Positions 6,126-51,289 of a stretch of DNA of 56,028 nt are shown here, in pieces. Position numbers and translations under genes: made by a program. The stretch lies in the IMG/VR virus record IMGVR_UViG_3300041809_000290, positions 1 through 56,028 of that record, one strand, 5' to 3'. This DNA is from a virus. Position 1 is the first letter of the stretch. The number at the start of each line of letters is the position of its first letter. The notes under the pieces are model-generated. The model was not told the origin of the DNA and made no database searches. It saw only the letters and a program-made list of their open reading frames with translations.

Positions 6126-7031
6126 ATGAAGCATGTATTTTATCATGGAGCAGACTTAGATGGATGGTGTGCTGGATTTATTTGTTCTCTAGGGTTGCGT
6201 GCAGAGGGTGTAGAGTATGAACTACATTCTTATGATTATGGAAATTCGTTTCCTCACAACGAAGTGGACCTCAAGAAGGATTCGTTGATATTTACGGATG
6301 TAGTTCCTAGTCCTTATGACAATCTTTTGCGTATATGCCAAGAAGGATATGATATTACAATTATCGATCATCACAAATCTTTAATAGAGTTCGTGCAATC
6401 ACAATTGACTTCATTTGATATCAAAGGACTTTTAAGTGATCAAGTTTCAGCTTGCATGCTTGCGTGGAAATACTATTTCCCTTCTTTAACTGTTCCTGAG
6501 TATATTAAACTACTTAGTTTATATGATACTTGGAACAATAAAGACAAAGAACTTTGGGACAACCGTATCATGCCATTTCAATTGGGTTCTCGGGTACATG
6601 CTAAAAATCCCTCAATTGATAACAATTTTTGGAATGATCTTCAGGACCATCGTTATGATTCTGAACGCATAAACAAAATTATTAATGACGGTATAGTATG
6701 CATGGATTACAAAAAACAAGATGATGAGAAGAACTGCCATCTGTCATTCAATGGAACGATGGTTGATTTTCCTAGTTATCGTTGTATTTGTTTAAACACT
6801 GGTTTTTGTGGTTCACAAACTTTTGAAAGCAAATGGAATGAAAATGATTATGACATTATGCTCGCGTATAATTACAACGGCCATGGATTTTCGGTTAGTC
6901 TTTATACTACCAAAGATATTGATGTATCAAAAATAGCGGTATCATATGGAGGAGGAGGCCACAAACAAGCAGCAGGATTTAGAGTTAAATCTGTTGAGAT
7001 AAAGGATGGTATTATAATATTTACTAAGTAA
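6126..7031 (+). CDS. DHH-DHHA1 family phosphoesterase
   Basis: 301 residues, with GAAGGAGG before the ATG. Motifs of the DHH superfamily are in order: HGADLDG (residues 7-13), D58 in FTDVV, IDHH (80-83), and a C-terminal DHHA1 glycine motif GGGGHKQAAGF near residue 275. This combination is that of NrnB/NrnA-like oligoribonucleases and cyclic-dinucleotide phosphodiesterases, which need Mn2+. In a phage it may recycle short RNA or DNA pieces. Degrading a nucleotide alarm signal of the host is another possibility and is only inferred. Array B begins at its last codons. Confidence 0.9.
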   Translation: MKHVFYHGADLDGWCAGFICSLGLRAEGVEYELHSYDYGNSFPHNEVDLKKDSLIFTDVVPSPYDNLLRICQEGYDITIIDHHKSLIEFVQSQLTSFDIKGLLSDQVSACMLAWKYYFPSLTVPEYIKLLSLYDTWNNKDKELWDNRIMPFQLGSRVHAKNPSIDNNFWNDLQDHRYDSERINKIINDGIVCMDYKKQDDEKNCHLSFNGTMVDFPSYRCICLNTGFCGSQTFESKWNENDYDIMLAYNYNGHGFSVSLYTTKDIDVSKIAVSYGGGGHKQAAGFRVKSVEIKDGIIIFTK

Positions 7032-7395: not shown

Positions 7396-7418
7396 TATTC
7401 GAATAGGAGAAGCGCGTG

Positions 7419-8153
7419 ATGCTCAGATTAGTGGTTCCCGTTGAATCTCGTTTAATGAAATCCCGACAACAAAATTCAACTCAAGGAGTTCGACTTGTCG
7501 TCAACGAGGATTCATGCAAGATTGAGAGCAAGCAAAGCACGACCCGTTGGAAGAATATTGAAAAAAGCCATCAATCAACAATTGTATTACAACGGGGATC
7601 AAGACCATCCCAAAAACAAGTTGCGTTATTGTCGAAGAATAATAGTCGATTACAGAGTAAATGCGAGAATGCGATCATTGAAAAACTCGCAGAGATCGAA
7701 CACGATAGATGGAGTGGGCAAGCTAGAACTGCTTTAGATAAAATGGATAATGAACGAAGAACGAGATGGGATAAATTGTCCAAGACTCCATATGATAAAT
7801 TAACAGAGGAAATGAAACAAAAATATAGGGATCAAGTTTATGAATATTGGCCTATAATTAAATCATTTATTTTATCGATGATGGGCAGGAAATTTAAGAA
7901 AAGTTTAACTGATTTGTGGGTTGTTCCTCGAAGTCCTGGTATGTCTGTTGAAAATCATTCCAAGAAAACATTTAGAGTAATTGATGACAAACAATCGCTG
8001 TTTGACACTGACGAAGAACAACAGAAGAAGCAAGAGAAGAACAATACTGAATTGAAGATAATAAACAAGCATCGTAAGAAGGCCGTGAACCACCAAATTC
8101 AACAATCAAGAACTTCTATTGATCCCGTATATGCGCCAGAGCAAATGTATTAG
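7419..8153 (+). CDS. phage protein with IEHDRW motif; N-terminal frame unsure
   Basis: 244 residues from ATG 7419, with AGGAGA upstream. The middle part (KLAEIEHDRWSGQ ... TPYDKL ... VYEYWPII, residues about 87-145) resembles a small widespread phage family with an AEIEHxRW motif of unknown function. That family usually starts close to the motif, so the 85 residues before it are unexpected. Over 7495-7737 the +1 frame gives an 80-residue basic product (RPVGRILKKAINQQLYY) that looks equally protein-like. Two genes may overlap here, or a frameshift may be present. The C-terminal 50 residues are charged and probably disordered. Confidence 0.6.
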   Translation: MLRLVVPVESRLMKSRQQNSTQGVRLVVNEDSCKIESKQSTTRWKNIEKSHQSTIVLQRGSRPSQKQVALLSKNNSRLQSKCENAIIEKLAEIEHDRWSGQARTALDKMDNERRTRWDKLSKTPYDKLTEEMKQKYRDQVYEYWPIIKSFILSMMGRKFKKSLTDLWVVPRSPGMSVENHSKKTFRVIDDKQSLFDTDEEQQKKQEKNNTELKIINKHRKKAVNHQIQQSRTSIDPVYAPEQMY

Positions 8154-32603: not shown

Positions 32604-34712
32604 ATGGTCCTTAACGCAAGTAGAGCTATAAAAGCTGCACAGTTTTACTCTGGAGAACAAGCTACCAGCGCTGATTTTAATTTTATGGCACAAGAGACCT
32701 ATCAAAATGAAGTTGAACTTTTGGCGATGCTCGCTAATAACGAAGATGTGGATGATGTCTCCACTTCGGATACTGTTATAGCCGGTTTAATTGCTACAAC
32801 AATATCAAATTTAAACGTTACACTAACTGCCGGATGCGCGGTATCTTTCTCGGGATCTTATTGGTCCAATAATACCTGGGGATGGGTTTCCGGCGCTGGA
32901 AACATATTTGGGGTTATTAATCCATCGGATCAGGTTCTTGCATTTGGATCTAATTCTGGAACTTACACCAGATATGATATCGTCGAGATTCAACCAGTAT
33001 TAAATAGTTATAATTCTTCATCTCGACAGTTTATAGACCCTGTTACGCAGCAAGTATCGACAAATAATGTTAATACAAGATATGAATTTGGAATTAATAT
33101 AGTAATTAAACCAGGAAATGCTTCGGTTCAAAATACCTATCCGACTACTGATCCTGGATACATTAAAGTTATGGAAGTGGCTATACCTGTGGGGGCTACA
33201 ACTCCAAGTTATGTATATGACTCTCGAAACACTGGATTATGGAATGGCAATAATGGCGGTACAAGGTGCAGTAAAGATTTGTTTTATTATATTGCACAAA
33301 ATGCTGCAAGTTCTCCTTTTACCACTTCGTTGCCATTGGCATCGGCAAATAGAGGAAGAATGTATATTTTTCAAAAAACCGATAGTAGTGCAAATACCGT
33401 TACTGTAACTGTTACTGGAGCCGATACTATCAATGGATCGGTCACTTCAATTGTTCTGTCTTCACAATGGGATTACGTTGTTCTTCGTGCTATTAATTCA
33501 GGAAATTATATTGTCATCGCTAATGGAATTGGGCAATGGAAATCTGCATTAACAAAGCCGTTGGGTGCAGGTTGGCCGATAGCACTAAATGCTTCTGCCG
33601 TGTTGGGGTCGGCAAACGGAATTGATGCGGCATCGGTTATTCAGTATGGAATAGGGACACTAAGCCCTCCGAGCATAACAAATCTTAACCAATATTTGCC
33701 TGGGGGATTTTATTTAACTACTAATGCTTGTACGGGTGCACCAGGAGGGCTGGCTCACTACTTTGAAGTAATAATTGTTACTGTAAGTACTACACAATCT
33801 GTACAATACGCATTTGATACTTCCACATTAATATTATATAAAAGATACTATTCGGGTGGGGCAGGCACTTGGGGCACGATTTATGATTCAGTATCTCTGC
33901 CTCTCGGGACCAACTGGCCCGCAGTCCTTGCAGGCGCTCTCGGGACCAACTGGCCCGCAGTCCTTGCAGGCGCTCTCGGGACCAACTGGCCCGCAGTCCT
34001 TGCAGGCGGGACGATGGGCTCCGGGTCCGGAGCAGGAGGCACGATCCCCAACGGCCCGTGGACCAGCTATACGTTCTGGTCGAGCGGAGTCGGCCCGAAT
34101 ACCGTCATCCTGCCGCCTATCTCCAGCATGCAAGTAGGCAATAGGGTCACGGTGTACACTGGGGCCGCGGTTACGACTATAAACGCGGCCGGATCGGACC
34201 ATCTTGGATATTATGGCGGATCGTATGGGACTTCTTTTGTTCTCCAGGCGTGCGGCGACTATGTTACTCTCGAATACAACCCGGCGGGCCTATGGGCCGT
34301 CGTCGCGACGAACGGACCGGAACTTGAAGCATCTTATAGCGGTTCAATAACAACCGGAACTCCTGGTTCAGGTGTACCTTATAATATAGGAAATATTGTT
34401 TTAGTTCCTGGAGTTTACGATTTATTAATGACGGGGGACGTAGACGCTGAAACAGGTTACGCTACAACTATGTCCCTGTTAGCCGCTTTGTCTACATCTT
34501 CTTCTAGTATATCTGACAATGATCTGGCCGGGGAGGCACTAGTTGGAATGCAAAGTGCGAATGTAGGCGAAGTTCGAGGGTCAATAACTAAATTAAAAAG
34601 AGTTATTATCACTACATCAACAACTTATTATTTAATATTTTTATTATATGGTAACAGTCCTCCACTTGCTTATTATAGAAACTTTAGAATAAGTGCAAGA
34701 AGATTGGCATAA
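32604..34712 (+). CDS. tail fibre protein
   Basis: 702 residues; GGAGGAAACTCATC before the ATG. N-terminal region helical (SGEQATSADFNFMAQETYQNEVE), like baseplate-binding ends of fibres; middle strand-rich; residues about 433-470 made of three 12-residue repeats (LGTNWPAVLAGA) and a following Gly-rich stretch; C-terminal domain strand-rich. About 33890-34325 is much richer in G+C than the flanks and uses different codons, so this part of the fibre looks newly recombined. Host-range determinant. Confidence 0.8.
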   Translation: MVLNASRAIKAAQFYSGEQATSADFNFMAQETYQNEVELLAMLANNEDVDDVSTSDTVIAGLIATTISNLNVTLTAGCAVSFSGSYWSNNTWGWVSGAGNIFGVINPSDQVLAFGSNSGTYTRYDIVEIQPVLNSYNSSSRQFIDPVTQQVSTNNVNTRYEFGINIVIKPGNASVQNTYPTTDPGYIKVMEVAIPVGATTPSYVYDSRNTGLWNGNNGGTRCSKDLFYYIAQNAASSPFTTSLPLASANRGRMYIFQKTDSSANTVTVTVTGADTINGSVTSIVLSSQWDYVVLRAINSGNYIVIANGIGQWKSALTKPLGAGWPIALNASAVLGSANGIDAASVIQYGIGTLSPPSITNLNQYLPGGFYLTTNACTGAPGGLAHYFEVIIVTVSTTQSVQYAFDTSTLILYKRYYSGGAGTWGTIYDSVSLPLGTNWPAVLAGALGTNWPAVLAGALGTNWPAVLAGGTMGSGSGAGGTIPNGPWTSYTFWSSGVGPNTVILPPISSMQVGNRVTVYTGAAVTTINAAGSDHLGYYGGSYGTSFVLQACGDYVTLEYNPAGLWAVVATNGPELEASYSGSITTGTPGSGVPYNIGNIVLVPGVYDLLMTGDVDAETGYATTMSLLAALSTSSSSISDNDLAGEALVGMQSANVGEVRGSITKLKRVIITTSTTYYLIFLLYGNSPPLAYYRNFRISARRLA
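33903..34008 (+). repeat. 36-bp tandem repeats within the tail fibre gene
   Basis: Three units (starts 33903, 33939, 33975; the third 34 bp) with apparently identical sequence. They encode three copies of LGTNWPAVLAGA. A diverged relative (LGAGWPIAL) is encoded near 33560. In-frame number changes would lengthen or shorten the fibre. Confidence 0.92.
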
Positions 34713-37556: not shown

Positions 37557-37598
37557 AATACAGTGACGTCTAAACATTACACTCTAGGAGAGCAACAG

Positions 37599-38966
37599 AT
37601 GATTGCCACGACTAAGGAAGTTAATGGAATTAGTCAAGACTTGGTAAAGTTCTCTTATCATTTTGCATATCGAATGAAGAGATTTATTCATGCCGAAGTA
37701 GAGGATTTAAGCCAGGAACTTTTAACTCGCACTTTGGAGTACATTTATAAACAACCGACAGCTGTTAAGAAGGCCACGATAACAACATTTAAATCCCATT
37801 GTCTTAGCCTTATGTCGTGGACGGCAAGAAAGATGTTATCTGAAAAGTGCAGTCAAAAAAAAGGCCACGCCATATCTCGTGCTAAACAACGTATAGATGG
37901 GTTATGCTTTGATAATTCTCAGGGTCTAATAGATAGAAATAAGCTTCCTGACATTTGTCAATATTCGTCCAATCAATCAGTAACCACATGTAAGATTCCA
38001 ATTGTGGATTATGCTGAAAGTCGATATGATGACTTTGATAGGTTGGTATTAAAATTGGACATAAACAGGATAAAATCAGTGCTTAGTTCCGATGAATTAT
38101 CTGTTGTCAATCTTTTGGAACAAGGGTTTCGAGGAAGAGAAATAAATAAGATAATGTCAGGAAGTCATGGGTACGCACATTTCATGTTAAAGAATCTTCG
38201 ATCAAAATTAACGGCTATTAAAGATATTTACTTTAATGACTTGACATTCAAACAAATTAAACATAATATTAAATCTGCATCAATAAATGAGGGTCTTTTG
38301 ATCCCCAAAGAACATGAAGGAGGTTGCAATATGGCGACCACGAAGAAGACTCCGGATAAAAAGAAGGCGCCTGCAAAGAAGGCTCCGAGCAAAGATCCCA
38401 AGGCCAAGAAAGAGGTTGCGAAGAAGGCTCCTGCGAAGGCTTCCGCAAATGCCCCTGTTACCAAGGCAAAGCCCAAGGCAAAGGAGAGGGCTCCTCGCGT
38501 GCCGGGAAAGAGCGAAAAGATAGTTGCATTCATTCAGCCGTTCCTCGATAAGGGAAAGTTGTCGAGGCGCGAAATCGCCGTCAAGGTGGCTGAGAAGTTC
38601 GATCTTACGGAAGGAACTTCGTACATCTATGTCACTCGACAAGCCAACGAGGGCAACTCTCCCAAGAAGAAGACTGCGAGCAAGCCTTCTGAAAAGAAGA
38701 CTCCATCAAAGACTTCGAACAAGAAGGCGCCTGCAAAGACTCCGGCCAAGCCCAAATCGAAGAAAGCCAAAATCGAAGAAGAGGAATACGAAGAGGAAGA
38801 GGCCCCTGCTCCTAAGAAGAAGTCGTCAAAGGCAAAAGCGAAGACTGCAAAGTCAAAGGGAAAGCCCAAGGATGAAGAGGGGGATGAGGATCTTCTTGAG
38901 GACCCCTTCGCCGATGAGGACGACGCTGAGGAGGAAGAGGAAGAGTTCGATCCGGAATCGGACTGA
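37599..38966 (+). CDS. sigma-factor-like protein in frame with H1-like domain
   Basis: 455 residues if read to the end. ATG 37599 lies 8 bases after AGGAG; a GTG at 37563 is only 7 bases behind the -10 box. Residues about 10-220 look like a sigma70/ECF factor: a region-2-like helix block (FSYHFAYRMKRFIHAEVEDLSQELL...) and a region-4-like end (LSSDELSVVNLLEQGFRGREINKIM). From residue 245 on the same frame becomes the Lys/Pro/Ala-rich protein described separately. No stop codon separates them. A phage sigma factor could switch transcription to its own late promoters; this is inferred. Confidence 0.65.
   Translation: MIATTKEVNGISQDLVKFSYHFAYRMKRFIHAEVEDLSQELLTRTLEYIYKQPTAVKKATITTFKSHCLSLMSWTARKMLSEKCSQKKGHAISRAKQRIDGLCFDNSQGLIDRNKLPDICQYSSNQSVTTCKIPIVDYAESRYDDFDRLVLKLDINRIKSVLSSDELSVVNLLEQGFRGREINKIMSGSHGYAHFMLKNLRSKLTAIKDIYFNDLTFKQIKHNIKSASINEGLLIPKEHEGGCNMATTKKTPDKKKAPAKKAPSKDPKAKKEVAKKAPAKASANAPVTKAKPKAKERAPRVPGKSEKIVAFIQPFLDKGKLSRREIAVKVAEKFDLTEGTSYIYVTRQANEGNSPKKKTASKPSEKKTPSKTSNKKAPAKTPAKPKSKKAKIEEEEYEEEEAPAPKKKSSKAKAKTAKSKGKPKDEEGDEDLLEDPFADEDDAEEEEEEFDPESD
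38331..38966 (+). CDS. histone-H1-like Lys/Ala/Pro-rich protein with acidic tail (internal start)
   Basis: 211 residues from ATG 38331, which has a strong own site (GAAGGAGGTTGCAAT). Residues 1-60 are KKAPAKK-type repeats, 65-110 a small globular, possibly winged-helix-like region (SEKIVAFIQPFLDKGKLSRREIAVKVAEKF), then another basic stretch and a Glu/Asp-rich end. Codons are GC-rich, unlike the sigma-like part before it, so it is probably an abundant, separately made nucleoid-like DNA-binding protein. The upstream frame enters it without a stop. Confidence 0.7.
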   Translation: MATTKKTPDKKKAPAKKAPSKDPKAKKEVAKKAPAKASANAPVTKAKPKAKERAPRVPGKSEKIVAFIQPFLDKGKLSRREIAVKVAEKFDLTEGTSYIYVTRQANEGNSPKKKTASKPSEKKTPSKTSNKKAPAKTPAKPKSKKAKIEEEEYEEEEAPAPKKKSSKAKAKTAKSKGKPKDEEGDEDLLEDPFADEDDAEEEEEEFDPESD

Positions 38967-43906: not shown

Positions 43907-44154
43907 TGAACTTGTATCTGTGTTCTAATCAAATTGGAGACTATTATGTAATTGCAGAAGATCCAACTTCCGCCCAAATTAAATTGGAGCGCTTATTGGG
44001 TGGCGGTGGTGTGGAGGGAAGCGGTTACGGACTTAGTTTTGAACGAAAGGTTGAGAATATAAAGCTTCTTGCAATAGCAATAACGTTTGATAAGGATAAA
44101 CGGCCAGAATTTACTGGTAAATATTTAATATTAAATGAGGAAGCTACAAAATGA
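43906..44154 (+). CDS. small hypothetical protein
   Basis: 82 residues. The start overlaps the previous stop (TAATG), with AGAGGAGG upstream. Strands at the N-terminus and a Gly run (GGGGVEGSGYG) in the middle. Could bind a ligand through this loop, but no family is recognised. Confidence 0.7.
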   Translation: MNLYLCSNQIGDYYVIAEDPTSAQIKLERLLGGGGVEGSGYGLSFERKVENIKLLAIAITFDKDKRPEFTGKYLILNEEATK

Positions 44155-44816
44155 AAATAATTGATCAATCCTGTCAAATATTGTCTAATAACTATTTTGA
44201 TAATGATAAGAAATTCATTGAAATGTCGGGTAGGGTGGCTTATAAATCTGAGGACAAAATATCAGATGATTCCGCCGATCAGTTTATTAAAATGATTGTT
44301 CTAAAGGGACACGAGGCTGTTCTCGAACATTCTTCGATGAGTGTTAAGTTTATTACTGATCGTGGCGTGAGTCACGAACTAATTCGACATCGAATAGCGA
44401 GTTTTACACAGGAGTCAACGAGGTATTGTGATTACTCGAAGGACAAATTTAATCGACAAATAACTTATATACGTCCAGTTTGGGTAGATTCTTTAGTTGT
44501 ATCAATCAACACAGAAGAGAACTGGAAGTCTACAAGTACAAATTATTTGTGGTATCAGTCAATGCGCGAGGCTGAGAACTTTTATTTTGAATTACTGTCA
44601 AAAGGGTGGAGTCCTCAACAAGCTAGGAGCGTTCTACCAAACAGTCTAAAGACTGAAATAGTGGTTACTGCTAACTTCAGAGAATGGCGACATATATTTA
44701 AACTTAGGGCCATATCGAAGGCTGCACATCCTCAGATGAGGGATCTTATTATTCCATTGTATCGATATTGTCGGCACAATTGCCCAAGTGTGTTTGATAT
44801 GGGGGATGTAGAATGA
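44151..44816 (+). CDS. thyX: flavin-dependent thymidylate synthase ThyX
   Basis: 221 residues; start inside the previous stop. The ThyX signature RHRIASFTQESTR (79-91) matches RHRxxSxxxxSxR, and further conserved pieces (VLEHSSMSVKF, ... FREWRHIFKLR) are present. It makes dTMP from dUMP using FAD, NADPH and methylene-tetrahydrofolate, supplying precursors for phage DNA. Length is normal for the family. Confidence 0.95.
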   Translation: MKIIDQSCQILSNNYFDNDKKFIEMSGRVAYKSEDKISDDSADQFIKMIVLKGHEAVLEHSSMSVKFITDRGVSHELIRHRIASFTQESTRYCDYSKDKFNRQITYIRPVWVDSLVVSINTEENWKSTSTNYLWYQSMREAENFYFELLSKGWSPQQARSVLPNSLKTEIVVTANFREWRHIFKLRAISKAAHPQMRDLIIPLYRYCRHNCPSVFDMGDVE

Positions 44817-44992: not shown

Positions 44993-45218
44993 ACCTATTT
45001 CTGGTTGTGTCGATCTTTTGATAGTTCATCCCCAACATTACAATCAAACAAAATTTGAAGTATGGGACGTTTTGGATGCGTGGTTTCCTCATGATCCCCT
45101 TCTCTGGCAAGCAGTGAAATATATTGCGCGCGCTCCATTTAAGGGTAACTCAGTTCAAGACATAGGAAAGGCCCTAAACTACCTACAACGTTGGATAGAT
45201 AAGGAGCAATCAAAATGA
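44979..45218 (+). CDS. DUF3310-like nucleotide-kinase-associated protein
   Basis: 79 residues. Recognisable pattern HPQHYN ... FEVWDVLDAW ... QAVKYIARAPFKGN ... DIGKALNYLQRWID, i.e. the HPxHY...EvxDv...KYixR...KG...D..KA..YL.R type of DUF3310. These small proteins occur in phage nucleotide metabolism regions, sometimes joined to MazG-like or kinase genes. The MazG-like gene follows directly. Confidence 0.88.
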   Translation: MAKTEPISGCVDLLIVHPQHYNQTKFEVWDVLDAWFPHDPLLWQAVKYIARAPFKGNSVQDIGKALNYLQRWIDKEQSK

Positions 45219-45859
45219 CATTCAATCACTATCAAGAGCAGGCTAAGAAAACCGCTATATTTCCTAACTTTGTTTATGACATTTCGTTTAATTCCATTGA
45301 ATTTACGGAGCAACCGTCAATCAAAATTATTTATCCTACTCTTGGATTAATTGGAGAGAGCGCAGAACTTTATGAGAAGATGCATTATTTTACAATAGAA
45401 GCCTCAACGACTTCGGTATCAGAAGTGCATTCTAAAATTATTCTTGAGTTATCAGACGTACTTTGGTGCATTTCTATTCTTGCCGATATACTGGGGCATA
45501 AGCTTTCTACTGTTGCTCAATTTCGTGGTGAGGACAATGAGGAATTAACTTTTGATTCTTGGATAAAAGATCATATAGCATTTGAAAGACACGGTGCTAA
45601 TACCATAGTTGATGACTTGTTGTATTCGACTGGATTATTTGCAGAATGTGTTAAGAAGATATTAAGAGATCAAGGTGGAATAATTGACAAAATAAGTGGA
45701 GAGAGGTTGTTTGAAATCCTGCATAATTGTCTAGTTTATATCGGAACTATCTCAGTTAAAATAAATTCAACATTCAATCATATTGCAATAAAAAATCTGG
45801 AGAAGTTGGAATCTCGAAAGGAACGTGGAGTATTAAACGGTTCAGGGGACACTCGATGA
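45215..45859 (+). CDS. MazG-like nucleotide pyrophosphohydrolase
   Basis: 214 residues; starts inside the DUF3310 stop. MazG-type helices: YPTLGLIGESAELYEKM with the EExxE-like acidic group, then ELSDVLWCISILAD (ExxD). The end NLEKLESRKERGVLNGSGD is shared by many phage MazG proteins. MazG enzymes hydrolyse NTPs or ppGpp; in phages they are thought to adjust nucleotide pools or host stress signals. Confidence 0.88.
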   Translation: MTFNHYQEQAKKTAIFPNFVYDISFNSIEFTEQPSIKIIYPTLGLIGESAELYEKMHYFTIEASTTSVSEVHSKIILELSDVLWCISILADILGHKLSTVAQFRGEDNEELTFDSWIKDHIAFERHGANTIVDDLLYSTGLFAECVKKILRDQGGIIDKISGERLFEILHNCLVYIGTISVKINSTFNHIAIKNLEKLESRKERGVLNGSGDTR

Positions 45860-46737
45860 CCAAAGAGGTCGCGCTCAGGTTTGATACGCATGTCGATATT
45901 GACATGCAAAAGACGGTGAACTTTCTTGAAGAGTCCAGGAAGGTAGTTCGAAGTTTATTTGAACAAAATCCTAAGCTTGCTATACAGGCTTTGAATCAGG
46001 TATCAGCGATAGAGGCAATGTCACATAAAATAAAACTTGATGAACTTCAACAACAAGCGATGATATCTAAGGTGTCTATGCAACGAGAAATAGGGACCCT
46101 TTTAATGCCATTAGTAAAACGAGGGCCAAAATTAAATAATAGTAAGAATCCAAGCCTCAAGGATTTAGGAATTAGCGAGGATGAATCAAAGGTGTGGCAA
46201 AAGTATGCTACTCTTCCAGAGTATGCATGGAATTTTGCTCTTAAACAGCAGTTGTTTCCTCGGAAGACTTATTTACTTACAGAGATTAAAAGATTTGTAG
46301 AGATTAGGGATTACTTAGATATGATGGAGGATGTGCGAGTCGATCAACTTGCGCTAAAGGAGTATTTTGTTAAAGGTTATGTATTGGCAGATGTGAAGGC
46401 AGATCTTGAACAAAATGATATTCAGACTAAATCAGAGCGTAAGGCTAAGTCTTCTGTCGGTAAACAGGCTTGGAAGTATGAACAAGAGTCTCAAGAGGAA
46501 GAAGAGGTCGTTGATGATTCTATTGTGGAAAATATGGTCGATCTTCTTGTTGCAAATAGCGAGGCGTTCGAGCATATAGTAGACGAATCAGTGGCCTTTT
46601 TTGAGCAGATCAAATCTGCTAAGATAACTAAGTCCGATCGAGAAAACATAGAGATATCTATGGATCGGTTAATCGAGTGCAGTAAGCAAATGTTCAAGGC
46701 TTATAGAAGAGCAAGGAAGGTATTGAAATGGCAGTGA
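45856..46737 (+). CDS. possible DNA-binding partner of the tubulin-like GTPase
   Basis: 293 residues; start in the previous stop. A helical N-terminal half contains MQREIGTLLMPLVKRGP ... PSLKDLGISEDESKVWQKYATLPE, resembling a helix-turn-helix segment found in phage and plasmid proteins of this type. The C-terminal half is helical with a Glu tract (QESQEEEEVVDD) and ends basic. It overlaps the tubulin-like gene by 10 bases, so translation is coupled. A TubR/ParB-like adaptor that ties DNA to the filament is a hypothesis. Confidence 0.65.
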   Translation: MTKEVALRFDTHVDIDMQKTVNFLEESRKVVRSLFEQNPKLAIQALNQVSAIEAMSHKIKLDELQQQAMISKVSMQREIGTLLMPLVKRGPKLNNSKNPSLKDLGISEDESKVWQKYATLPEYAWNFALKQQLFPRKTYLLTEIKRFVEIRDYLDMMEDVRVDQLALKEYFVKGYVLADVKADLEQNDIQTKSERKAKSSVGKQAWKYEQESQEEEEVVDDSIVENMVDLLVANSEAFEHIVDESVAFFEQIKSAKITKSDRENIEISMDRLIECSKQMFKAYRRARKVLKWQ

Positions 46738-47840
46738 TTCAATTCATCATCGGTCTAGGGCAGTGTGGTAATCGTCTTGCTAAGACATTTTCAGAGGAAT
46801 TCGAGGCGCCTTGTTGTTTCCTAAATTTGGCAACTATTGATTATGCACAATCAGGATTCCCAAAGTCCGCCATTCTTGCTATTGATGAGAATGGAACCGG
46901 AAGAGATCCGGAGGTTGGGGAACGATTGGCTCAAGAGCATAAGCCTCAGATATTAAAGTTCTTGGAACGACAATTTCCAGAATTAGATAAAGGCGATCGT
47001 GTCCTCGTTTGCGTAGGGTTGGGAGGGGGAAGCGGAAGTGGTCTTTTGTCTTTAGTGCTCAGTTGGCTATTTAGTAAAAAGTCTGAAGTGCTTCTTGTAG
47101 CTACTCTTCCTCAAGATAGTGAAAGTCTTCCTGCTAAACCAAACGCTTTGTCGAGTTTAAACACAATAATAAAGAAGTATTTGAAGCCTAAGAAACTTAC
47201 CTTGCTTGTTGTTGACAACCAATTTGCCTTGGAACGTTACGGCACAGAGGACGATGACATCGATGAAGACTCTGGTAATTATTGGTTTAAGGTAAATAGA
47301 GGAATTGTCAAGTCATTGGTACGATATAGAAATCTTACGGATATGGAGCAGTACTTAAATGCTGTTGAAATATCAAGTGGAATCGGAAGCTTTGATGAAC
47401 GAGAGCTTATCAGAGTGCTATTTTATAAGGGAGGAATAATAGACATCAGGGAATTGGTGTGTAATAAATTGGATTTAGATTTAATAAGTAGTGCAAAGTT
47501 TAGATCATTAATATTTGGAAATCTTGATATAGGTACTACTAAGATGTATGCGGTTGCCGTTGGATTTCCTTATTCAATGCGTAATGATCCGAATGTTCCT
47601 GAATTTCTTGATATGATATATAAAAAGTTATCTAAGATAACTCATACTACGTTTGTTTTGAGATCAAGCCACTTTAATAAAAAAAGTAAGGCTATACATG
47701 TGAATGTGTTGTTGTCGGGTCTCACCCAAAGTAAAGGGTTAAATAAAATAATAAAGCATACGGCTAAAGATGTTGCAAAGTATAATTCTAAGGCTGATAT
47801 TGAGAAACTTGATTTAACGGGAATTAAGTTTAAGGGGTAA
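46728..47840 (+). CDS. tubulin/FtsZ-superfamily GTPase (PhuZ/TubZ-like)
   Basis: 370 residues; GAAGGTATTGAA before the ATG. N-terminal IGLGQCGNR (8-16) corresponds to the first nucleotide-binding loop, GLGGGSGSG (97-105) is the tubulin signature GGGTGSG with a Ser for Thr, and TLLVVDNQFAL (158-168) matches the FtsZ strand with IPND-like loop. SFDERELIRVL (221-231) fits the T7 loop with D223 and E226 in place of the two catalytic acids. Thus a GTP-hydrolysing filament former is likely. Phage tubulins (PhuZ, phage TubZ) centre or segregate phage DNA. No C-terminal KNN-like tail can be asserted. Confidence 0.88.
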   Translation: MAVIQFIIGLGQCGNRLAKTFSEEFEAPCCFLNLATIDYAQSGFPKSAILAIDENGTGRDPEVGERLAQEHKPQILKFLERQFPELDKGDRVLVCVGLGGGSGSGLLSLVLSWLFSKKSEVLLVATLPQDSESLPAKPNALSSLNTIIKKYLKPKKLTLLVVDNQFALERYGTEDDDIDEDSGNYWFKVNRGIVKSLVRYRNLTDMEQYLNAVEISSGIGSFDERELIRVLFYKGGIIDIRELVCNKLDLDLISSAKFRSLIFGNLDIGTTKMYAVAVGFPYSMRNDPNVPEFLDMIYKKLSKITHTTFVLRSSHFNKKSKAIHVNVLLSGLTQSKGLNKIIKHTAKDVAKYNSKADIEKLDLTGIKFKG

Positions 47841-47842
47841 GT

Positions 47843-48334
47843 ATGGACACTGCCAAAAGCGTTATTACTGTTCATATAGGCGATAAGACTTATGCGGAAG
47901 CTATTGAAAACAATATTCAACCTTCCTCGCTTACTCCGGAGAATTTAAAGAATGGTCTTGCTAAGGCTGTGGGCAAAAGAGCATTTTATGCGGCTCTTCG
48001 AGCCGATGGTAAGAAAATGGCCGCGTCGATAGATACCGACTTTGACTTTTGGAAGGCTACAAAGTTTAATTCAATAGCCCAACTTCCTCAATATAAAAAA
48101 GCTGCGCAAAAGGTTATCGACATGCAGATCATGATTCGATATCCCAAATCATATAAAGCGCATTTAAGGAGGCAACGAGAGATTTCATACGTTAATGAAA
48201 GGCTTCTTGTGCTTGTTACTGCTTATGAGAACTTAATATCAGCATTGCAAAGTATTGCGAAGCTGACCATAAGCGAACTAAACATATTCAGCAGCGGTGC
48301 TGGATCCGAATCAAGTGGGGATTTTAATGACTGA
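47843..48334 (+). CDS. hypothetical protein downstream of tubulin
   Basis: 163 residues; starts 2 bases after the tubulin stop, with AAGGGGTAAGT upstream. N-terminal strands (SVITVHIGDKTYAEAI), basic helical centre (LRRQREISYVNERLL), acidic tail. No family recognised. Its adjacency may mean that it belongs to the same filament system. Confidence 0.7.
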   Translation: MDTAKSVITVHIGDKTYAEAIENNIQPSSLTPENLKNGLAKAVGKRAFYAALRADGKKMAASIDTDFDFWKATKFNSIAQLPQYKKAAQKVIDMQIMIRYPKSYKAHLRRQREISYVNERLLVLVTAYENLISALQSIAKLTISELNIFSSGAGSESSGDFND

Positions 48335-48350
48335 TAGAAAGGAGACAACG

Positions 48351-49706
48351 ATGAAGGGAAAGAGCACTGGTTCTACGAGGGTTCGACCGGCGAAAAAGAC
48401 TTCGACTAGGAAGTCAGACGCGAATGATTTCACCGATGATGAAGTTGTTCGCGAGTCTCAGCAAGCCACTCAATCGAGTGGAAATTACATTCGAGTTAAG
48501 GAAGGAGAGAAGGCCCCGATTTATTTCCTTAGCTCTAAGTTCGAGCAGGGCTATGAGCATTGGATTGACATAGGAGGTAGTCCAAATCGAATTCCTTGTG
48601 CGGGTGGCATGAAAGGAAAGGGCTATGCCGCTGATGACTGTCCTCTTTGTGCTTTAGCGCAAGAGCATTTTAATTCCGCAAAGAAATTGGCAAGTGCCGG
48701 TAAGTCTTCTGCGGCAAAGGCTGAGAAGGATCTAGCATTTAAGATTAGAGCTAAATATGCAATGTACTTCATCGCAGCTAAGGGCGAGCGCAACGTAGTA
48801 TCTGTAAAGGGCGAGAAGCAATTCAAAATAGAATTTGATAATGCACAGGTTGGTCTTCTCTCATTGACTAAGGCCAATCGGGATGCTTTTGCTGCGTGTA
48901 AGGCAAAGTACGATTATATAGTTCAGAATAAGGATCTATTTAATCGATATATAATTTTTGATAAGCGCAAGCGTGGAGAAGACGAGTTCTCGTCGGTAGA
49001 ATTTATACCTGCGAAGAAACCTTCCGAAAAGCCCGACGTAGAGATACCGGAGGATGTTGATCTTGACAGCGTTTTTGAAGTTGACATGGCTCAAATTAAA
49101 AAGGTTGCCAAGGCATTCCGCGCTGGTGATTTTGAAGAGGAAGACGATTCGAATGTGGACCTCGAAGATGAAGATGAGGAGGATGAGGACTCTCTTGAAG
49201 AGTTAGATTCAGACGATGATGACTCTGAAGAAGAGGACGAGGACTCCGAAGAGGAAGAAGAGGATGAGGAGGAAGAGCCTACGCCTCGGAAACAGGCTAA
49301 ATCAAAAAAGAAGCCTCCTGTGAAGAAGCATTCGAAATCGAGGGATGTTGAGGAGGAAGAGGATTCGGATGAAGAGGAAGTGGAGGATGAAGACTTCGCT
49401 GACGTTGAAGAGGACGAAGACGGCGATGAAGAATCCGAAGAGGAAGGGGATGACGAAGACTTCCTCGGTAAAATAACGGATGATTTTGAAGACGATGACC
49501 CCGAGGAAACGCCCAAGAAGCGAAAGACTCGAGAAGAGAAGACGACCAAGAAGGTAATAGGAAAGAAGCCCGGTCCTGTATCGGGTTTCAAGAATCGGGG
49601 GCCTGCGAAAGAAGCTCCTGAGAAGAGGAGAGGACGGCCGACGAAGAGTACTCCTCCTCTACCAGCAAAGGCCAAGGCTATATTAAAGGCCAAGCATCGA
49701 GGATAA
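48351..49706 (+). CDS. single-stranded DNA-binding protein, gp32-like, with acidic tail
   Basis: 451 residues from ATG 48351 (AAAGGAGACAACG); a GTG at 48297 would lie in the previous gene. OB-fold-type region about 45-240 with zinc-site Cys C83, C97 and C100 (DCPLC), as in phage SSBs with a zinc ribbon. Residues about 255-400 are Asp/Glu/Ser tracts that presumably contact partner proteins. The last 60 residues are basic with an AT-hook-like RRGRPTK near 426. The acidic part is much longer than in T4 gp32. GC-rich codons suggest high expression. Confidence 0.8.
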   Translation: MKGKSTGSTRVRPAKKTSTRKSDANDFTDDEVVRESQQATQSSGNYIRVKEGEKAPIYFLSSKFEQGYEHWIDIGGSPNRIPCAGGMKGKGYAADDCPLCALAQEHFNSAKKLASAGKSSAAKAEKDLAFKIRAKYAMYFIAAKGERNVVSVKGEKQFKIEFDNAQVGLLSLTKANRDAFAACKAKYDYIVQNKDLFNRYIIFDKRKRGEDEFSSVEFIPAKKPSEKPDVEIPEDVDLDSVFEVDMAQIKKVAKAFRAGDFEEEDDSNVDLEDEDEEDEDSLEELDSDDDDSEEEDEDSEEEEEDEEEEPTPRKQAKSKKKPPVKKHSKSRDVEEEEDSDEEEVEDEDFADVEEDEDGDEESEEEGDDEDFLGKITDDFEDDDPEETPKKRKTREEKTTKKVIGKKPGPVSGFKNRGPAKEAPEKRRGRPTKSTPPLPAKAKAILKAKHRG

Positions 49707-50293: not shown

Positions 50294-51289
50294 ATGGCAA
50301 CTCTTAAGGAACTTGAATCCGCAGTAAATAAAGGAGTAGGAACAAATTTAGTAACTCATTTAACCACTAAAGGCGCTAAAGTAGTTAAATCAGGTTTAAG
50401 CACAGGTTCAATGTGTTTAAACTATGCTCTTAGCGGAACTCCGAACATAGGATTTGCCTATGGTAGAATGGTAGAACTGTTTGGTCCGGAGAGTTCTGGC
50501 AAGACTACTTTGGCATTACACTGCATTGTCGAAGCACAACGTCTTAAACTTCCTTGTATTTATATAGATGCCGAAAATGCTCTTGACCCAATTTACATGG
50601 GCGCCGTGGGAATTGATTTAGACAATTTATCCATTGTACAACCAGATTATGGAGAGCAAGGTTTGCAAGCGGTGGAACATGCATTAAAGAACGGATATCG
50701 TTTAATTGTGGTTGATTCAGTGGCTATGTTAACTCCGAAGGCCGAACTTGAAGGTGATATTGGTGATGCTCATATTGGGCAGCAAGCTAGAATGATGGGT
50801 CAAGCTATACGTAAAATATCTAACATAACGAACAAGAAACAAGCGGTAGTTTTATTTATTAATCAAATCCGATATAAAATAGGAGTAATGTTTGGCAATC
50901 CCGAGACGGTCCCCGGCGGAATGGCACTTAAATTTGCGGCGTCTTATCGTTTGGAGATAAGAAGTCCTCGTGGTGATAAGATTGAAACGAAGGACGCTGT
51001 TGAAGGTAACACTGAAACGGGAACAAGGACCAATGTAAAAGTAATTAAGAATAAATGCTATATACCATTCCGAAAAGCGTCATACGAGATCGCTTATGGA
51101 AAAGGCATTGATAGAGTTCGTGATGCTGTTAATTACCTTGAAATGATTGGCAAGTTTAGCGATGGATCAATAGTATTTAATAAACATCGATTTAATAAGA
51201 AGAAGTTATATGAGGAAATGAAGACAAACAAAGAATGCCGGCAATTCGTGGTCAACATAATCAAGGAAGAAGCGAAAGGAACACATTAA
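50294..51289 (+). CDS. RecA-like recombinase
   Basis: 331 residues; TTAGGAGGTTTATTAA upstream. Walker A GPESSGKT (64-71), Walker B LIVVDSVA, RecA signature ALKFAASYRLEIR and the loop region GQQARMMGQAIRKI ... NQIRYKIGVMFGNPETVPGG, all in RecA order. The C-terminal domain is basic. It forms filaments on single-stranded DNA and drives recombination-dependent replication together with the SbcCD-like pair behind it. Confidence 0.95.
   Translation: MATLKELESAVNKGVGTNLVTHLTTKGAKVVKSGLSTGSMCLNYALSGTPNIGFAYGRMVELFGPESSGKTTLALHCIVEAQRLKLPCIYIDAENALDPIYMGAVGIDLDNLSIVQPDYGEQGLQAVEHALKNGYRLIVVDSVAMLTPKAELEGDIGDAHIGQQARMMGQAIRKISNITNKKQAVVLFINQIRYKIGVMFGNPETVPGGMALKFAASYRLEIRSPRGDKIETKDAVEGNTETGTRTNVKVIKNKCYIPFRKASYEIAYGKGIDRVRDAVNYLEMIGKFSDGSIVFNKHRFNKKKLYEEMKTNKECRQFVVNIIKEEAKGTH

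What the first reader, a model, noticed from the sequence alone, without database searches (positions are those of the whole stretch)
45856..48334. Phage tubulin-like GTPase with adjacent possible DNA-binding gene: candidate new segregation system
The gene at 46728 has the ordered tubulin/FtsZ elements GQCGNR, GLGGGSGSG and an acidic T7-like loop. It overlaps by 10 bases a 293-residue gene with a helix-turn-helix-like segment, and an unknown 163-residue gene follows. TubZRC plasmids and PhuZ phages have related layouts, but neither neighbour looks like a known TubR. The cluster lies inside a nucleotide metabolism and replication operon of what seems an ordinary myovirus, not next to nucleus-forming jumbo phage genes.
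Basis: partly seen in the sequence, partly recalled or inferred. Interest (0 to 1): 0.82.

Follow-up and report, generated by a model that had tools for sequence, protein, structure and literature searches.

The report
Divergent phage tubulin in replication operon
A bacterial virus of an ordinary tailed type carries a real but very divergent relative of tubulin among its DNA-replication genes, probably to move or place its DNA in the host cell, although no matching DNA anchor could be shown.

Summary
ORF 46728-47840 (370 aa) is a tubulin/FtsZ-superfamily GTPase: Pfam Tubulin 4.3e-13, above the curated cut-off; best solved-structure relative Bacillus TubZ; Foldseek matches to CetZ, TubZ and FtsZ at about 1e-15 to 1e-12. 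The motifs of loops T1, T3, T4, T6 and T7 are present. It is neither a PhuZ (6 bits against phiKZ PhuZ) nor a close TubZ. tblastn finds no relative in 50,697 phage or 72,556 plasmid records. Distant relatives (21-26% identity) exist in uncultivated phage contigs: a 344-aa form near a terminase gene, and a group of mostly 420-485-aa forms with conserved neighbours, one of whose likely members is already named 'FtsZ' in UniProt. The phage is an SPO1-type-capsid myovirus, and the gene lies in a tightly packed ThyX-MazG-...-RecA operon. The 'new segregation system' part is not established. The 293-aa neighbour is all-helical and shares a domain with phage proteins that often carry adenine-methyltransferase domains. 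It resembles no solved DNA-binding fold, is not beside any other tubulin found, and no repeat array resembling tubC flanks the operon. Most likely a GTP-driven filament that places phage DNA or replication centres. New variant of a known kind (phage tubulins), function inferred only.

The parts
46728..47840 (+). tubulin/FtsZ-superfamily GTPase, 370 aa (phage tubulin)
   Evidence: Pfam PF00091 4.3e-13, 50.4 bits against cut-off 33; PDB phmmer TubZ 8e-11; Foldseek CetZ/TubZ/FtsZ
46752..46775 (+). T1 loop GLGQCGNR (residues 9-16)
   Evidence: alignment A1 invariant G9, G11, G14; position
46893..46910 (+). T3 loop GTGRDP (residues 56-61)
   Evidence: aligned in A1; G56 invariant; shared with TubZ in the HMMER alignment
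47016..47042 (+). T4 tubulin signature GLGGGSGSG (residues 97-105)
   Evidence: only match in the window, 0 in 100 shuffles
47211..47219 (+). T6 motif VDN (residues 162-164)
   Evidence: N164 invariant in A1
47391..47405 (+). T7 loop FDERE (D223, E226), the acidic residues that complete the GTPase site of the next subunit
   Evidence: D223 invariant, E226 nearly invariant in A1
47733..47837 (+). basic C-terminal tail (last 35 aa, net charge +5), low-confidence in the model
45856..46737 (+). 293-aa all-helical protein, overlapping the tubulin gene by 10 bases; candidate partner
45997..46260 (+). domain (about residues 48-135) shared with phage proteins related to phrog_33995, several carrying MT-A70/Dam/N6_N4 methyltransferase domains; helix-turn-helix-like at residues 101-132
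47843..48334 (+). 163-aa protein, weak match to phrog_1069 (unknown function)
45215..45859 (+). MazG-like pyrophosphatase, start-stop overlap (ATGA) with the 293-aa gene
   Evidence: PHROG 2e-23
44151..44816 (+). ThyX thymidylate synthase
   Evidence: Pfam 1.7e-44
48351..49706 (+). protein with CxxC-type motif and long acidic then basic tails (likely start 48351; listed ORF from GTG 48297)
   Evidence: sequence; no confident family
50294..51289 (+). RecA/UvsX-like recombinase
   Evidence: tblastn to phage recombinases, 42-51% identity among the best-listed records

Best explanation
The 370-aa protein is a divergent phage tubulin. Shown: tubulin-superfamily sequence and predicted fold, with the motifs of loops T1, T3, T4, T6 and T7 intact, T7 acidic pair included. 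Inferred from the family: it binds GTP, assembles head-to-tail into protofilaments and hydrolyses GTP through D223/E226 of the neighbouring subunit, so filaments turn over or treadmill. Inferred from its place inside the replication/nucleotide operon: it is made together with the replication proteins and moves or centres the replicating phage DNA or replication centre during infection, as PhuZ does for the phage nucleus and TubZ for plasmids. How it grips its cargo is unknown; the overlapping 293-aa helical protein is the first candidate for the adaptor (about 0.3).
For: Pfam Tubulin over cut-off; PDB profile order TubZ 4.8e-29, CetZ 2.1e-22, FtsZ about 3e-18; AF2 model with confident GTPase core and Foldseek hits to tubulin-fold proteins in all 50 listed PDB matches; conserved active-site residues across 11 diverse homologues; coding signal and translational overlaps with MazG-like and 293-aa genes; replication/nucleotide context; precedents PhuZ and TubZ (PMC7950403, PMC9178275).
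Against: No polymerisation data. C-terminal half of the model is low-confidence (pLDDT below 50 in much of 173-240 and 334-370). Relatives in other phages sit near a terminase gene or in another conserved neighbourhood, not in replication operons, so context does not fix the role. No adaptor or centromere-like DNA found.
Confidence: 0.5

Rival explanations
1. A TubZRC-like partition module of a plasmid-type prophage: the filament segregates phage genomes between daughter cells during lysogeny, with the 293-aa protein in the role of TubR.
For: Best solved-structure relative is TubZ; a co-transcribed neighbour with a helix-turn-helix-like segment; the record is a fragment, so lysogeny genes or a centromere could lie outside it.
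Against: Neighbour has no TubR or other DNA-binding fold match and belongs to a domain family found with methyltransferases; no iterated repeats in 43.0-50.4 kb; motor and adaptor order is reversed relative to the usual downstream adaptor (PMC8026635); no repressor, integrase or other partition gene was recognised among the window proteins scanned.
Confidence: 0.17
2. It acts on the host: the phage tubulin co-assembles with or poisons host FtsZ to block division during infection.
For: Superfamily match also covers FtsZ; phages commonly block host division (general knowledge).
Against: A full set of T-loops and T7 acids suggests an autonomous GTPase polymer rather than a short inhibitor; only 26 bits to the FtsZ equivalog model, cut-off 295.
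Confidence: 0.13
3. It organises virion assembly: the filament carries capsids or tails, or scaffolds packaging, as PhuZ filaments carry capsids.
For: The closest phage relative lies a few genes upstream of a terminase large subunit gene.
Against: In this phage the gene is in the replication operon, well downstream of the recognised tail and baseplate genes.
Confidence: 0.12
4. Two unrelated neighbours: the 293-aa protein is a regulator or part of DNA modification/metabolism and has nothing to do with the tubulin.
For: Domain shared with proteins carrying methyltransferase domains; none of the other tubulin loci found has it. This rival concerns the pairing only and can be true together with the best explanation.
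Against: The 10-base overlap implies translational coupling.
Confidence: 0.6

Closest known systems
TubZ of Bacillus plasmids and Clostridium phage c-st (type III partition, TubZRC)
   Same: Best sequence and profile match among solved structures; similar length; GTPase motifs in the same order; basic C-terminal tail.
   Different: No TubR-like protein, no tubC-like repeats near the operon; the partner candidate is upstream and all-helical; lies in a replication operon of a myovirus.
PhuZ of Chimalliviridae (phiKZ and relatives)
   Same: Phage-encoded tubulin; phrog_4733 touches residues 70-154 at 2.2e-4.
   Different: Direct comparison with phiKZ PhuZ gives only 6 bits; BFVD matches to PhuZ far weaker (1.6e-7) than to the uncultured-phage FtsZ-like protein (2.7e-16); no detectable chimallin in the window.
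Uncultivated-phage FtsZ-like proteins (UniProt A0A6J5RW92; IMG/VR loci L007, L029, L092 and others)
   Same: Closest fold match in BFVD; share T4, T6 and T7 motifs; phage-borne.
   Different: Mostly longer (about 420-485 aa) with Pro/Ala-rich N-terminal extensions; different conserved neighbourhood; 21-26% identity to this protein.
CetZ / FtsZ
   Same: Tubulin fold; Foldseek CetZ 1.5e-15.
   Different: Far below the FtsZ equivalog cut-off; not a cell-division gene context.

Membership tests
Tubulin/FtsZ superfamily | GTPase domain above curated profile cut-off | tested here: met
   50.4 bits against 33; repeated
Tubulin/FtsZ superfamily | T1, T3, T4 and T6 nucleotide motifs and T7 acidic residues in order | tested here: met
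Tubulin/FtsZ superfamily | Two-domain tubulin fold | tested here: met
   Foldseek to CetZ/TubZ/FtsZ over most of the length, E 1e-15 to 1e-11; TM about 0.4-0.5 and low confidence after residue 172, so the C-terminal domain is only roughly modelled
Tubulin/FtsZ superfamily | GTP-dependent polymerisation | not testable with these tools
   needs biochemistry
TubZRC (type III) partition system | TubZ motor | tested here: inconclusive
   TubZ is the best solved relative, but Pfam TubZ-like_C did not match this protein and other superfamily members also match
TubZRC (type III) partition system | TubR winged-HTH adaptor encoded next to the motor | tested here: not met
   293-aa neighbour: all-helical, no solved fold at E <= 0.001, phmmer to PDB shows no TubR
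TubZRC (type III) partition system | tubC/tubS array of repeated adaptor sites | tested here: not met
   no such repeats in 43.0-50.4 kb and no candidate tandem array beside the operon; the rest of the genome is not available
PhuZ (Chimalliviridae) | Close sequence relation to PhuZ | tested here: not met
   6.1 bits against phiKZ PhuZ; weak phrog_4733 match only
PhuZ (Chimalliviridae) | Phage nucleus genes (chimallin, multi-subunit RNAP) | tested here: inconclusive
   none detected in the window, but the record is a 56-kb fragment
FtsZ | Above the FtsZ equivalog cut-off | tested here: not met
   26.4 bits against 295.2

The most novel reading that the evidence does not exclude
A third, unnamed class of phage cytoskeleton: tubulins of phages outside the nucleus-forming family that place replicating DNA, here with a new helical DNA-associated adaptor encoded in a gene overlapping the motor gene, working without TubR, tubC or a phage nucleus.
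Probability: 0.2. Interest if true: 0.8.

Novelty: new variant of a known kind. Interest (0 to 1): 0.52.

Why it matters
Phage tubulins are described in the papers read here as two groups, TubZ of c-st and PhuZ of jumbo phages, found only in large-genome phages (PMC7950403). A TubZ-leaning tubulin within the replication operon of an SPO1-type myovirus, together with relatives in uncultivated phage contigs, suggests that tubulin-based placement of phage DNA or particles is broader than the nucleus-forming phages and does not need a phage nucleus. That can be tested directly by expressing the protein.

Tried and rejected
tblastn of the tubulin in phages and plasmids: nothing. Pattern searches from single proteins in viral contigs: no relatives. 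A motif pattern with a third-position Thr gave no additional tubulins. Searched the tubulin-bearing loci for the 293-aa protein and, in part of them, the 163-aa and other neighbours: none. Considered ParB or TubR identity for the 293-aa protein from its LGIS..ES..WQ motif: rejected as unsupported, since relatives are proteins with methyltransferase or unknown partners and the model matches nothing solved. Considered a centromere: the only repeated families between 43.0 and 50.4 kb are coding repeats of the acidic tail at 49.1-49.5 kb and short, mostly two-copy chance matches. Tree: long branches; grouping of this protein with L055 has 87/85 support and is suggestive only; PhuZ placement is not interpretable. 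Phage Dolphis, a relative by capsid and sheath, has no tubulin.

Full report
Observation. The middle one, 46728-47840, 370 aa, has T1 GLGQCGNR, T3 GTGRDP, T4 GLGGGSGSG, T6 VDN and T7 FDERE in order. The T4 motif as DNA pattern occurs once in 56 kb and in none of 100 shuffles. Codon use is coding-like in that frame only, for all three genes. The upstream gene overlaps the tubulin gene by 10 bases and itself overlaps the MazG-like gene by four (ATGA); the downstream gene starts two bases after the tubulin stop. This is a tightly packed polycistron.

Identity. Pfam Tubulin/FtsZ GTPase matches at 4.3e-13, above its curated cut-off; the FtsZ equivalog model does not reach its cut-off. Among solved structures a single-sequence search gives Bacillus TubZ first (8e-11), and a profile made with 10 relatives gives TubZ 4.8e-29, CetZ 2.1e-22, FtsZ from about 3e-18. 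The AlphaFold2 model has a confident nucleotide-binding half and a weak C-terminal half (mean pLDDT 64.8); Foldseek still aligns it along nearly its whole length with CetZ, TubZ and FtsZ (E 1.5e-15 and weaker). In the viral structure library the best match is a 452-aa 'FtsZ Cell division GTPase' of an uncultured tailed phage (2.7e-16), with PhuZ of phage Noxifer at 1.6e-7. Directly compared with phiKZ PhuZ it scores 6 bits. It is a genuine but very divergent phage tubulin, neither a PhuZ nor a close TubZ.

Relatives. tblastn finds nothing in 50,697 phage and 72,556 plasmid records. Scanning IMG/VR with the T4 motif and testing the hits by phmmer found relatives in two sorts of contig: a 344-aa protein (L055/L126, 23% identity) upstream of a terminase large subunit gene, also on a 99-kb contig, and a group of proteins mostly 420-485 aa long (plus a 381-aa form, L033), many on large contigs, with a conserved neighbourhood in many of them. 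The best structural match, A0A6J5RW92, is probably of this group by length, so such proteins are already in databases under a generic FtsZ name. A tblastn with one of them against cultured phages hit only phage G, weakly. One chromosomal relative is in the Candidatus Tariuqbacter MAG, beside alaS- and hflX-like genes as I read them; close matches occur in only two of 39 genomes of that phylum. In a tree the window protein joins L055 with 87/85 support, but branches are very long.

The neighbour. The 293-aa protein has no confident Pfam, NCBIfam or PHROG family. Its central segment fits a motif, LGI[ST]..[EQ]S..WQ...A..PE, that occurs in 33 IMG/VR stretches. Outside the searched motif the similarity is still above shuffles: four of 33 relatives beat the best of 967 shuffled sequences, and a profile of the upstream parts scores the real sequence 12.2 bits against 12.3 for the best and 8.0 for the second of about 2,000 shuffles. 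Relatives match phrog_33995, and five of the eight full-length relatives tested continue into MT-A70, Dam or N6_N4 methyltransferase domains. The model is entirely helical with a helix-turn-helix-like stretch at 101-132, but no solved structure matches (best E 0.22). It could bind DNA, as methyltransferase-associated domains may, but nothing here shows it, and it is not next to any other tubulin found.

The phage. Major capsid and sheath are 25-31% identical to those of 86-95-kb myoviruses such as Bordetella PHB04, Pseudomonas Dolphis and Touem01, and also match SPO1-type Bacillus phages. Sheath, baseplate and capsid-protease families match. Replication genes are a DnaC-like loader, DnaB, primase, RecA/UvsX-like and SbcCD. 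No chimallin was detected. The record is a 56-kb linear fragment, so absence of lysogeny or nucleus genes is not proof.

Mechanism. Shown: fold family, intact active-site motifs, operon position. Inferred: GTP-driven protofilaments, T7-dependent hydrolysis and dynamic turnover (about 0.8 given the motifs); a role in moving or centring phage DNA or the replication centre (about 0.5); the 293-aa protein as adaptor (about 0.3). Rivals are prophage partition, host FtsZ interference and virion assembly. The neighbour-is-unrelated rival concerns only the pairing.

Verdict. The tubulin call is right; the 'new segregation system' remains a hypothesis. It is a new variant of a known kind.

Noticed in passing
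window 37563-38966 +: One open frame holds an N-terminal protein without family match and, from an internal in-frame ATG at 38331 with a strong ribosome-binding site, a Lys/Ala/Pro-rich histone-H1-like protein; there is no stop between them.
   Followed up: partly
window 33901-34008: Perfect tandem repeat of 36 bases, three copies, inside ORF 32604-34712.
   Followed up: no
window 48351-49706 +: Protein with a CPLC-type motif followed by a long acidic and then basic tail, next to RecA; possibly a single-stranded-DNA-binding protein, no confident family match.
   Followed up: no
window 7416-8153 +: Weak RyR-domain match (1.7e-5, just under cut-off) next to a DHH/DHHA1-domain protein at 6126-7031.
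   Followed up: no
L080, L029, L104, L148 and others (IMG/VR): A group of mostly 420-485-aa phage tubulins with Pro/Ala-rich N-terminal extensions and a conserved neighbourhood (a 638-aa protein that looks portal-like but has no PHROG match, a GtrB-like glycosyltransferase match and further genes without a match), nearly absent from cultured phages.
   Followed up: partly
L151 7965-9074; G001:C83:230-1261: Candidatus Tariuqbacter chromosomes carry, besides FtsZ, a 369-aa tubulin-like protein and a 785-aa open frame with a tubulin domain; close matches in only two of 39 genomes of the phylum.
   Followed up: partly
L162-L194 (IMG/VR): A helical domain family (related to phrog_33995, no Pfam match in seven of the eight segments tested and only a sub-cut-off DUF1491 hit in the eighth) is often fused N-terminally to MT-A70, Dam or N6_N4 methyltransferases in phage contigs.
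   Followed up: partly
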